From the NCBI GenBank assembly GCA_001564275.1, contig LKND01000010.1, positions 1 through 46,357 of the forward strand: a DNA stretch of 46,357 bases, written 5' to 3'. This DNA is from Natrialbaceae archaeon Tc-Br11_E2g14 (GTDB taxonomy: Archaea > Halobacteriota > Halobacteria > Halobacteriales > Natrialbaceae). How positions within the stretch are numbered: position 1 is the stretch's first letter; each line of letters starts with the position of its first letter. The notes under the pieces are model-generated. The model was not told where the DNA came from and made no database searches. It saw nothing but the letters and a program-made list of their open reading frames with translations. Of this stretch, positions 24,367 through 42,694 are shown piece by piece. A program made the position numbers and the translations under genes.

Positions 24367-24485
24367 ACTGCCTCCGTTGTAATTGTTTTCGAACCTGACC
24401 TTCTCATCCAATTTACTGTCGTCTCTTCCCGGTGATTGCCCATACCGAGTCGGCGTTTACCGGTAAACCGTCACAGCAAACCCCA

Positions 24486-39426: not shown

Positions 39427-39478
39427 GGACGCGGCCGGCCACCGGTGGGGACCGCGACAGCGTTCCCCCTCAGCTATC

Positions 39479-39560
39479 GTAGCCACTGCAAGTCATTGCA
39501 CACCTGATCGCCAGACGTATCGGCGATCAGTGTGTGAATCGTTACAGTTGTTACTATACT
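39479..39560 (+). repeat. Conserved-flank hairpin element, copy 1
   Basis: The left flank 39479-39503 ends in GTCATTGCACAC and the right flank 39533-39558 contains GAATCGTTACAGTTG. Between them CTGATCGCC (39504-39512) pairs with GGCGATCAG (39522-39530) around a 9-base loop, and CACAC (39499-39503) can pair with GTGTG (39532-39536) past one bulged T, so 14 pairs in all. The two flanks are themselves partly complementary. Copy 2 shares both flanks but not the core. It lies between two plus-strand genes. Confidence 0.7.
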
Positions 39561-39604
39561 CTGTCCCCACCTCCGACGACGCTTCCTCGGCGCGAATTCG
39601 CCCT

Positions 39605-39620
39605 AGCTGTCTAGACAGCT
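39605..39620. promoter_or_regulatory. 16-base perfect palindrome upstream of the 3-dehydroquinate synthase gene
   Basis: AGCTGTCTAGACAGCT is identical to its reverse complement. It contains CTAG, which is usually rare in haloarchaeal DNA. It is about 70 bases upstream of the TATA-like TTCAAG (39689-39694), a fitting place for an activator or repressor site. Confidence 0.45.
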
Positions 39621-39718
39621 CCCCACTCGAGCGGGCACAGCCGAGGGTGACCTCGAGCGGACGGGAAAACCCTGACGAAGTCGCCACGTTCAAGCCACCT
39701 CCGTTCGACGGCCACAGT

Positions 39719-40897
39719 ATGACACGCACGGTCTGGGTCAAAGCCGACGACACTGTCGGTGACTGGGACGCCCGTCGCGAGCGCATCACGACTGCCCTCG
39801 AGGCCGGGGCCGACTGGGTACTGGTCGACGAGGCTGACGTCGCTCGAGTTCGCGAGCTCGGGGAGATATCGGTCGCCGCGTTCCGAACCGACGGCGACGT
39901 GAGTTTGATCGACGATGCCGAACCCGAAGCATCGAGCGCCAAACCCGATGCGTACGTGATCGGCAAAGACGGCGAGGGTGACGGGACGATCGAACTGCCG
40001 ACCGATTTCTCGGGGTCCGCCGACCTCTCGACACTGCGTCGCGAGAGTCAGGTCGAAAGCGGGGCGTACGTTCGCATTTTGGGCAAGGACTACGAGGAAT
40101 TCGCGGAGGCTGCCGCCGAAGCCACAGCGCACACCATCGTCATCGGCGAGGACTGGACGATCATCCCCCTCGAGAACCTCATCGCCCGAATCGGCGAGGA
40201 GACGAACCTCATCGCTGGCGTCACGACGGCTGCGGAGGCACAAACGGCCTTCGAAACGCTCGAGATCGGAGCCGATGGGGTCTTGCTCGACAGCGGCGAT
40301 CCCGACGAGATCCGGCGCACGGTCGAGGTTCGGGAGGCGGCCGAACGGGAAACGCTCGACCTCGAATGGGGAACCGTCGTCGAGGTCGAACCCGTTGGCT
40401 CGGCCGATCGGGTCTGTGTCGACACTGGCAACCTGTTCGAACACGACGAGGGGATGCTCATCGGCTCGATGTCCCGTGGGCTGGTCTTCGTCCACGCCGA
40501 AACCGCGGACTCGCCGTACGTCGCCTCCCGGCCGTTCCGGGTCAACGCTGGTGCGGTCCACGCTTACGTGCGCACGCCCGAGGGCGGCACGAAGTACCTC
40601 TCGGAACTCAAAAGCGGCGACGAGGTACAGGTCGTCGACACCGAGGGGCACACCCGTGAGGCAATCGTGGGCCGGGTCAAAATCGAGAAGCGACCGATGT
40701 TCCGCGTCGCCCTCGAGACCGCAGCCGGGGACCGCATCGAAACGCTGTTGCAGAACGCCGAGACGATCAAGGTCGCCACGAAAGACGGCCGTCGGGCGGT
40801 CACGGACCTCTCGCCAGGTGACGAACTCGCGCTCTACTACGAGGATACCGCCCGCCACTTCGGCGAGGCGGTCGACGAGAGCATCATCGAGAAGTGA
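39719..40897 (+). CDS. aroB': 3-dehydroquinate synthase II
   Basis: 392 residues from ATG 39719; the frame extends to 39386 but that part covers the repeat element. This archaeal enzyme makes 3-dehydroquinate from an aldol product of aspartate semialdehyde and a deoxy-keto sugar phosphate, the alternative entry to the shikimate pathway. Family marks: MTRTVWVKADDTVGDWDARR, WTIIPLENLIARIGEETNLI, GADGVLLDSGDPDEIRRTVE, DRVCVDTGNLFEHDEGMLIG, RPFRVNAGAVHAYVRTPEGG, GTKYLSELKSGDEVQVVD and the C-terminal KIEKRPMFRVALETAAGD. Full length. TTCAAG at 39689-39694 fits a leaderless start. Its usual partner enzyme (the aldolase) is not nearby. Confidence 0.94.
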   Translation: MTRTVWVKADDTVGDWDARRERITTALEAGADWVLVDEADVARVRELGEISVAAFRTDGDVSLIDDAEPEASSAKPDAYVIGKDGEGDGTIELPTDFSGSADLSTLRRESQVESGAYVRILGKDYEEFAEAAAEATAHTIVIGEDWTIIPLENLIARIGEETNLIAGVTTAAEAQTAFETLEIGADGVLLDSGDPDEIRRTVEVREAAERETLDLEWGTVVEVEPVGSADRVCVDTGNLFEHDEGMLIGSMSRGLVFVHAETADSPYVASRPFRVNAGAVHAYVRTPEGGTKYLSELKSGDEVQVVDTEGHTREAIVGRVKIEKRPMFRVALETAAGDRIETLLQNAETIKVATKDGRRAVTDLSPGDELALYYEDTARHFGEAVDESIIEK

Positions 40898-41025
40898 CCG
40901 AGCCGACGGCGATGGGGTGGGCGAGTCGAGGGGCACCCCTCGATCGGTACCAGACACGTCGTCTACAATCAAAACGCGTCACTCACATCCACTCGCGAGG
41001 GCTACAGCCACGCGTACGCCCTCGC

Positions 41026-41433
41026 TCAGGCGTGCTCTTCGCTCTCGGCCGGTGGCTCGAGACGCGCCGTACACCAGTGGCAGAACTCGAGGTCGGTGTC
41101 GAGTTCGCGGTTACAGTGTGGGCACGTCGGTCCCTCAACGTCGTTCGAGCCGATTGTCCCGAGGCCCCGGAAGAGCGCGTCCGTCGCCGCAAAAAGCACG
41201 AGGAAGCCGAACATGAATCGATCCAGCTGGCTCGTTTCCTGGGTCAGCGCCGTCCAGATGCCGTCGATGGAGGTCATCGCACTCAACTGATCCGTCGAGA
41301 ACGCGAGCGCGATAGCCATGACGAACAGTCCCGAAAAGAACATCGCCCGAACCCAGTCGCGGATAACTGCGTGGCCGATGCCAGGGAATAGAAGCGACAG
41401 CGAGGCGGCGATGAGTGCACGAGCCAGCGTCAT
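41026..41433 (-). CDS. Membrane protein with C-terminal zinc ribbon
   Basis: 135 residues. Membrane segments at about 5-22 (LIAASLSLLFPGIGHAVI), 29-46 (AMFFSGLFVMAIALAF) and 70-90. The tail carries a zinc ribbon with Cys104, Cys107, Cys118 and Cys121 (CPHCNRE..., FCHWC). Similar small zinc-ribbon membrane proteins are common in haloarchaea; role unknown. CGTTAAGG around 41461-41468 on this strand is about 28-35 bases upstream of ATG 41433. Convergent with the 3-dehydroquinate synthase gene. Confidence 0.78.
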   Translation of the reverse strand: MTLARALIAASLSLLFPGIGHAVIRDWVRAMFFSGLFVMAIALAFSTDQLSAMTSIDGIWTALTQETSQLDRFMFGFLVLFAATDALFRGLGTIGSNDVEGPTCPHCNRELDTDLEFCHWCTARLEPPAESEEHA

Positions 41434-41594
41434 GCTGTGGCCATCACTTGGTGACCGGGTCCCTTAACGTTGCGATTTCTGCGTGAACTGTTCAACCGAC
41501 TGGCTATTTCTCGAGCGAGGCTCGCTGTAATCACGTCCCGGCGCTCGCCACTACCGTATCGGGGGGCGCCGCTCCGTCGTGACACCGTTTCCAG

Positions 41595-42242
41595 TCAGGG
41601 ATGGGGGTCGTTTATATCGGGTGACGTGTCGACCGTAGGCGGGTCATTTCCGGCCCCCAGGCGGCCTTGCCGGAGGTGCCAGTGGTGGACGAGCGCCGAG
41701 ACCCCGAACATCACGAGCACGATCGTGGCCACGACCGACCCGGAGAGTCCATCGAACGGATAGCGCGCCGTCCAGGCAAGCCCGAGCAGGACCGCGCCCA
41801 CGCCGACCAGTCCGAGATAGAACTGACTCCACGGGATGTCGTGGGCGGGGACGTACTCGAGATACATCTGGACCTCGCGTGCTCCCTCGGTGAGTGTAAC
41901 GGTGCCACGCGATCGGTCGTAGTCGATGACGCCAGCCTCGTCGAGTTTGGGCAGGTGAGACTGTCGAAGTGCGGTGTAGACTCGCTTTCGTTGCTTCCAG
42001 GAGAGTCCCTCGACTGGTTGCTCGTACTCCCACTCCGAGAGCACGTCGACCAGGGTGCGAAGCTGGACTGCGCCCTCGTCGTGGCCCTTCAGATAGTGGA
42101 GCACCCAGCGACGTCGCTGGTTGCTCAACACGGTGAAGACTTCGTCCCTGCTCGGCCCGCTGTCGGTTCGGTCGGTACCCCCGGTGTCGTCGATAGTCTC
42201 GGTGATGGCGTTCACGTCACGTCCCCCTGCCCACACGGGCAT
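41595..42242 (-). CDS. Winged-helix regulator with two membrane helices (DUF7344-like)
   Basis: 215 residues from ATG 42242; a GTG at 42215 is an alternative. The N-terminal winged helix (about 30-125) has RDEVFTVLSNQRRRWVLHYL, then RKRVYTALRQSHLPKLDEAG and VIDYDRSRGTVTLTEGAREV, typical of haloarchaeal ArsR-like regulators. Two membrane helices follow (about 138-160, LGLVGVGAVLLGLAW; 166-187, GSVVATIVLVMFGVSALVHH), then a short tail. A membrane-bound transcription regulator is the simplest reading. Minus-strand ACTTAATGG at about 42268-42276 is 26-30 bases upstream, fitting leaderless ATG 42242. The plus-strand DUF1102 cluster is divergent from it across a 653-base spacer. Confidence 0.82.
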   Translation of the reverse strand: MPVWAGGRDVNAITETIDDTGGTDRTDSGPSRDEVFTVLSNQRRRWVLHYLKGHDEGAVQLRTLVDVLSEWEYEQPVEGLSWKQRKRVYTALRQSHLPKLDEAGVIDYDRSRGTVTLTEGAREVQMYLEYVPAHDIPWSQFYLGLVGVGAVLLGLAWTARYPFDGLSGSVVATIVLVMFGVSALVHHWHLRQGRLGAGNDPPTVDTSPDINDPHP

Positions 42243-42577
42243 CGGTTCGAGGGGACATGACAGTGTCCATTAAGTAATCGTCGCGTGTCACCGCACAACT
42301 GCTGGCTGTGCCAGCGCAGGCGATCCATACCGCCCGACGGTCGAAACGGGTGGTTGCCAACTCGGTGACTTGGACGAGTTTCGATACCGACGGTCGCGGA
42401 ACACGCAGTGGTCCGTGGAGCCATTGAAGCACTCGAGCGGTATTGGCTTCTCTCGAGTGGCTCACACGGTCTGTGAGACCACTGGATTGCCAACCGCCGA
42501 CGCGGAGCGGGTGGTCGGCTTCACCCGAGGATACCAGTCTCGATCGGATCGGCCACGGGCCAGTACCCACGACGATA

Positions 42578-42694
42578 GTAGCCACTGAACGTCATTGCAC
42601 ACTCCCTCACGACACCATGGCTCAGAACCGGTCACAAACCGGCTCTGAGCCGACTCGCTGTGAGGGTTGTAAATCGTTCCAATTGGTACTGTAG
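42578..42694 (+). repeat. Conserved-flank hairpin element, copy 2
   Basis: The left flank 42578-42602 matches copy 1 at 23 of 25 bases; the right flank 42667-42694 matches copy 1 at about 20 of 25 (AAATCGTTCCAATTGGTACT). The core is different: CCCTCAC (42604-42610) pairs with GTGAGGG (42660-42666), and inside it GGCTCAGAACCGGT (42619-42632) pairs with ACCGGCTCTGAGCC (42638-42651) with one mismatch and a 5-base loop. It is in the same orientation as copy 1, 3.1 kb away. Confidence 0.7.

What the first reader, a model, noticed from the sequence alone, without database searches (positions are those of the whole stretch)
39479..42694. A repeat family with conserved flanks and interchangeable hairpin cores
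Copies at 39479-39560 and 42578-42694 share a 25-base left flank (23/25 identical) and a right flank (about 20/25), but the DNA between is unrelated. Both cores nevertheless fold: 14 pairs with one bulge in copy 1, and a 7-pair plus a 14-pair nested stem (one mismatch) in copy 2. Left and right flanks are also partly complementary to each other, so each whole element is an imperfect inverted repeat. Conserved ends with variable but foldable centres is not how ordinary terminators behave. It fits a small non-autonomous mobile element (MITE or REP-like), a structured RNA class, or a recombination substrate. I have an unverified impression that this flank recurs in haloarchaeal genomes.
Basis: partly seen in the sequence, partly recalled or inferred. 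Interest (0 to 1): 0.82.

Follow-up and report, generated by a model that had tools for sequence, protein, structure and literature searches.

The report
Hairpin jumping-DNA family in haloarchaea
The two repeats are copies of a small, gene-less jumping DNA element that is scattered about a hundred times through this salt-loving archaeon and occurs in many of its relatives, very probably moved by an enzyme borrowed from a larger element.

Summary
Both copies belong to a dispersed family: 108 left ends in the 3.16-Mb host genome, reversed control 0. In 293 genomes of the order 69 match: 50 of 63 in the host's family (probably Natrialbaceae; host included) and 17 of 59 in a second family (probably Haloarculaceae). 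Elements are about 80 or 117 bp, with imperfect inverted ends and self-complementary cores of several subfamilies. Two clean empty sites, in Natrinema and Haloarcula, show insertion into CTAG with duplication of TA; eight other comparisons gave no clean junction. A 1,055-bp haloarchaeal IS630-family element has similar ends (best 25 of 30 positions), TA-flanked ends and mostly the same C..G flanks. So these are most likely MITEs moved by an IS630 transposase. Sixty resident copies of one subfamily show no covariation (4 cells against 5.5 shuffled) and no RNA-strand bias, while arms co-change between subfamilies; this argues against a host RNA function. Against: no IS630 transposase in the host or in several high-copy genomes, and no partner with identical ends.

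The parts
39477..39556 (+). MITE copy 1, 80 bp, short core subfamily (called type C here)
39475..39476 (.). left TA target duplication of copy 1
   Evidence: assigned by analogy with the clean empty sites.
39557..39558 (.). right TA target duplication of copy 1; followed by C, so the target would read CTAC today
   Evidence: analogy.
39480..39503 (+). left terminal repeat of copy 1 (24 bases used as pattern)
39530..39553 (-). right terminal repeat of copy 1
   Evidence: 2 mismatches to the shared end pattern.
42576..42691 (+). MITE copy 2, 116 bp, nested-hairpin core subfamily (called type A here)
   Evidence: 60 copies aligned at 87% mean column identity.
42574..42575 (.). left target duplication of copy 2, decayed to GA
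   Evidence: analogy.
42692..42693 (.). right TA target duplication of copy 2; C at 42573 and G at 42694 complete a CTAG target
   Evidence: analogy.
42579..42602 (+). left terminal repeat of copy 2
   Evidence: 0 mismatches.

Best explanation
The two sites are copies of one old MITE family. Shown: the elements end in unequal inverted repeats, are dispersed, and in two independent cases in relatives stand in a CTAG site whose TA is doubled. Inferred: an IS630-family (Tc1/mariner-like DDE) transposase supplied in trans binds the roughly 28-bp ends, cuts the element out and inserts it at CTAG. The core only has to be short and self-complementary, so it drifted into several subfamilies whose arms changed together. 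In the host genome no such transposase was found, so its copies are probably fossils that decay neutrally in intergenic DNA.
For: 108 left ends, control 0. Core types share ends with different self-complementary cores. Empty sites: Natrinema mahii filled, N. thermotolerans and N. salsiterrestre empty; Haloarcula hispanica pHH400 filled, H. sinaiiensis and H. marismortui empty; both give C-TA-[element]-TA-G against CTAG. In the own genome 45 of 87 copies with TA at either end restore CTAG, against 7 of 739 TA steps in the window. IS630 elements (PF13358, 1,055 bp between the TA pairs) have ends matching a partly degenerate MITE left-end consensus at 18 to 25 of 30 positions in 18 ends compared; the best has 18 of 23 beyond TATAGTA. 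Of 28,902 background TA positions 10 reach 16, and the 8 that reach 18 equal in number the MITE copies in those loci. C..G flanks in 14 of 18 IS copies read. 1 of 101 copies lies inside a gene predicted by my own simple finder.
Against: No PF13358 match in the host (91% complete) nor in other high-copy genomes: G003, G011, G014, G061, G093, G252, G267. No IS with ends identical to the MITE. The end asymmetry TAGTAG / TAGTAA of the MITE is matched in 10 of 20 IS end pairs read; 5 of 20 have TAGTAG at both ends and 5 differ otherwise. Only 2 of 10 filled/empty comparisons gave a clean junction; at both window copies relatives lack the same copy but the flanks are too diverged. A shuffle test for duplications found no signal, though it cannot see an invariant TA and did not test length 2.
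Confidence: 0.78

Rival explanations
1. A structured RNA or transcript-end signal kept by the host for its hairpin.
For: Cores differ but pair; across 52 short copies 14 of 33 pairs have two-sided changes, 65 cells against 22.2 in shuffles. Copies are intergenic.
Against: In 60 resident copies of one subfamily 4 cells have two-sided changes against 5.5 in shuffles, and all five measures are at or below the shuffled mean. G-T (56) and A-C (60) deviations are equal. The smaller own type C set gave 5 double cells against 2.6 expected, type D 0 against 0.1. No Rfam match. In tandem gene settings 28 copies oppose and 14 follow the genes, a weak bias.
Confidence: 0.05
2. A TA-duplicating MITE moved by a transposase other than the 1,055-bp IS630 group, for instance an unseen relative with exact ends (overlaps the best explanation if that relative is also IS630).
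For: MITE ends differ from every IS630 end compared (best 25 of 30); several high-copy genomes have no PF13358 match.
Against: Ends, TA pairs and C..G target flanks agree with the IS630 group.
Confidence: 0.2
3. A REP-like or IS200/IS605-derived palindrome (PATE) or a Haloquadratum-type SMR, inserted without target duplication.
For: Size (80 to 117 bp) and high copy number resemble the SMRs described in PMC3119063 (sections 23 and 25 read).
Against: TA is doubled at both clean sites; the ends are inverted repeats similar to those of a transposon, which by that paper's definitions SMRs and PATEs lack.
Confidence: 0.04

Closest known systems
Haloarchaeal IS630-family insertion sequence, 1,055 bp between TA pairs (for example L229, L236, L315, L316)
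   Same: Similar ends (18 to 25 of 30 positions), TA at both ends, C..G flanks in 14 of 18 read.
   Different: Carries a transposase (PF13358; records call it IS630 family transposase); ends not identical; half of the end pairs read do not show the MITE's TAGTAG / TAGTAA asymmetry.
Bacterial TA-duplicating palindromic MITEs: Correia/NEMIS, RUP, ERIC (recalled, from no call)
   Same: About 100 bp, TA duplication, imperfect palindrome, high intergenic copy number.
   Different: Unrelated hosts; here the target is CTAG and several cores share one pair of ends. Sequence relation not tested.
Haloquadratum walsbyi MITEs and SMRs (PMC3119063; passages and sections 23 and 25 read)
   Same: Short transposase-free repeats in a haloarchaeon; the paper notes mobile MITEs there without a functional partner.
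   Different: SMRs have no target duplication and no transposon-like ends; the HqIRS sequences were not compared.

Membership tests
MITE (IS630-type) | Terminal inverted repeats and too short to encode a transposase | tested here: met
   about 80 or 117 bp with imperfect inverted ends.
MITE (IS630-type) | TA target duplication | tested here: met
   two clean empty sites in relatives; 8 further comparisons not clean.
MITE (IS630-type) | Ends shared with an autonomous IS630 element | tested here: inconclusive
   Similar, up to 25 of 30, well above background, but no IS with identical ends found.
MITE (IS630-type) | Mobilised in trans by that transposase | not testable with these tools
   Needs a transposition assay; no PF13358 match in the own genome.
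SMR (Haloquadratum) | Inverted ends without target duplication and unrelated to transposons | tested here: not met
   definition.
PATE / IS200-IS605 | No terminal inverted repeats and no target duplication | tested here: not met
   definition.
Structured RNA family | Match to a curated family, or covariation with strand bias among resident copies | tested here: not met
   (0 matches at E<=1).
REP with RAYT | Linked TnpA-REP gene | not tested
   No search for RAYT genes was made.

The most novel reading that the evidence does not exclude
The hairpin itself is part of the transposition substrate: only copies whose two arms pair can act as source elements, so arms co-change between subfamilies while resident copies decay freely, and the enzyme aims these elements at CTAG, a word the host strongly avoids.
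Probability: 0.2. Interest if true: 0.6.

Novelty: new member of a known kind. Interest (0 to 1): 0.4.

Why it matters
It is a large MITE family in at least two haloarchaeal families, and it offers many filled and empty sites and subfamilies for timing IS630 activity. Its CTAG target means that an insertion removes a site of a word that this genome avoids (7 in the 46-kb window against 34 expected from its shorter words). I recall, from no call, that CTAG is methylated in many haloarchaea. The contrast between co-changing source lineages and freely decaying residents shows how foldable but variable cores can arise without a host RNA function.

Tried and rejected
Rejected: chance match or single local duplication. 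Rfam membership. Target duplications at other offsets (no z>3 for lengths 4, 5, 6 and 8; blind to an invariant TA). An autonomous copy behind unpaired ends in the fetched stretches, within about 1 kb (I saw remnants or indel-shifted copies). The MITE left end in viral contigs (0 exact matches). RNAalifold on the 60-copy alignment gave almost no structure, so the pairs were taken from the fold of the consensus. Insertions of the family into other repeats of the own genome: showed a second repeat family instead. Further plasmid sites: a Halomicrobium and a second H. hispanica site have siblings without the element but no clean junction; three others found no homologous flank on both sides. Three elements of the named loci (in L149, L173 and at 16251 of L171) were compared by blast only, not aligned.

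Rows dropped: a script found 113 left ends with up to 5 mismatches, 111 distinct because L036 and L099 overlap. The type A alignment used 60 of the 61 listed (L099 left out). The short-element alignment used 27 of the 31 own copies listed there plus 25 from other genomes chosen by hand for length. In one search three of the 27 own rows fell in neither type C nor D. Flank counts use 90 copies with good ends. IS flank counts leave out L247 (which fits), L248, L317 (cut by the contig end), L324 and L337.

Full report
What is there. Both fold far better than shuffles as single DNA strands. A 24-base left-end pattern with up to 3 mismatches finds 108 places, none for the reversed control. A script on the fetched stretches found 113 left ends with up to 5 mismatches, 111 of them distinct. 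The cores fall into groups: A, about 110 bp with a nested hairpin (window copy 2); B, A without its inner hairpin; C and D, 74 bp with unrelated stems (window copy 1 is C); and E, C with another element inside.

Where else. In 60 relatives, blastn of copy 2 matched 24 of 36 genomes of the same family and 0 of 24 of other families. The looser end pattern, with up to 2 mismatches, matched 69 of 293 genomes of the order, G000 included: 50 of 63 in family f1, 17 of 59 in f4, one genome of f7 with 13 places, and one place in f5 that may be chance; the reversed control gave 4 places in all. Strands are near balance in genomes such as G001 (50 and 44), G003 (20 and 19), G032 (48 and 49) and G023 (16 and 16), but not in G000 (42 and 62), G202 (36 and 18) or G070 (11 and 2). 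Family f1 is taken as Natrialbaceae because two hits in G032 have the coordinates of two Natrialba magadii plasmid hits and the best named relatives of a window gene are Natrialbaceae. Family f4 is most likely Haloarculaceae, because an 84-bp copy from it matches Halomicrobium and Haloarcula plasmids best. That copy matched 56 plasmid records at 235 places. The exact left-end pattern gave 0 viral contigs.

Mobility. Natrinema mahii carries an element 1.6 kb downstream of its 3-dehydroquinate synthase gene; N. thermotolerans and N. salsiterrestre have the uninterrupted site. Filled: ACTAC-TA-[TAGTAG...CTCCTA]-TA-GCGTGG; empty in N. thermotolerans: ACTAC-TA-GCGTGG. Haloarcula hispanica pHH400 against H. 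sinaiiensis and H. marismortui gives GAGC-TA-[element]-TA-GAAG against AAAC-TA-GAAG. Eight other comparisons lack a clean junction, including both window copies. The own copies fit the same target: 59 of 90 have C before and 67 of 90 have G after the TA, and 45 of 87 restore CTAG, against 7 of 739 TA steps in the window.

Partner. PF13358 (DDE_3) is found in 19 of 41 genomes searched, 18 of them over the cut-off, and not in G000; in a second set of 20 genomes that carry the MITE it is found in 14. One group, about 1,059 bp counting one TA at each end, has ends of the kinds TATAGTAGnCRTTAGAARTAATTGCTCACT and TATAGTAACCGTTAGAAYTTTCCGCCCA. Of 20 end pairs read, 10 have one end of each kind, TAGTAG and TAGTAA, as the MITE does in most subfamilies; 5 have TAGTAG at both ends and 5 differ otherwise. 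Flanks read C..G in 14 of 18 copies. Against a partly degenerate MITE left-end consensus, 18 IS ends score 18 to 25 of 30; the best scores 18 of 23 beyond TATAGTA. Of 28,902 background positions starting with TA, 10 reach 16 or more and 8 reach 18 or more, and 8 MITE copies lie in those loci. Other IS630 groups met in the same searches did not show such ends. Transposase frames are split in two in the copies translated, which is typical of some IS630 elements by recall.

Fold. In 60 type A copies the consensus folds into one long hairpin of 45 pairs. Pairs with a Watson-Crick consensus hold 2,264 paired cells, 56 G-T, 60 A-C and 166 other. Cells with changes on both sides number 4, against 5.5 in shuffles, and the share of paired cells equals the shuffled value (90.1 and 90.2%). 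So resident hairpins of this subfamily are not maintained and no RNA strand is preferred. In 52 short copies from the own and other genomes, 14 of 33 pairs changed on both sides (7 to 12 in slid controls), 65 cells against 22.2 in shuffles and 10 to 19 slid. Within the small own sets, type C has 5 double cells against 2.6 expected and type D 0 against 0.1. Relatedness inflates such counts, but the contrast suggests that pairing matters, or is restored, mainly in source elements. That step is inference.

Setting. By a simple codon-usage gene finder of mine, which marks 64% of the stretches as coding, 1 of 101 copies lies in a gene; 25 are convergent, 16 divergent, 14 tandem with and 28 tandem against the genes, and 17 have no neighbour in the locus. 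Of 40 listed plasmid records, 35 have gene tables, and in 32 of these no feature lies under the best match; the tables hold only part of the genes. Window copy 1 lies upstream of 3-dehydroquinate synthase II (39719-40894), copy 2 between a DUF7344 gene and a gene with a DUF1102 match.

Novelty. Eight searches of the held open-access library found no paper describing this family; the nearest, on Haloquadratum mobile elements (PMC3119063), was read in passages and in sections 23 and 25. ISfinder and most subscription journals could not be searched, so a name may exist. I file it as a new member of a known kind.

Noticed in passing
window 24412-24482; also L011, L023, L029, L030, L031, L033, L063, L073, L107: A second dispersed hairpin family of about 83 bp (TACGGWTTA...TAAWCCGTA): 70 blastn matches in the own genome counting both strands of the palindrome, with 40 of 87 candidates scored. 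Most copies read look flanked by a 3-bp TGA or TCA repeat, and it sits inside the right arm of type C elements at two different sites.
   Followed up: partly
L030, L031, L033: The composite (second element inside a type C element) occurs at three loci; the insert is turned round in L030, which suggests at least two insertions at the same spot.
   Followed up: partly
window, whole: CTAG is strongly depleted: 7 found, 34 expected from shorter words, 154 from base composition.
   Followed up: partly
L124, L125, L126: In other genomes the core carries a different repeat (GCGCGGTTCGGAGCGAACGAAGTGAGCGAG and similar), as if hairpin loops attract insertions.
   Followed up: no
L149 9830-9913: Natronosalvus hydrolyticus has its own, opposite-facing copy with another core upstream of the same 3-dehydroquinate synthase gene as window copy 1.
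   Followed up: partly
window 39605-39620: Perfect 16-bp palindrome AGCTGTCTAGACAGCT just beside copy 1, containing one of the few CTAG words.
   Followed up: no
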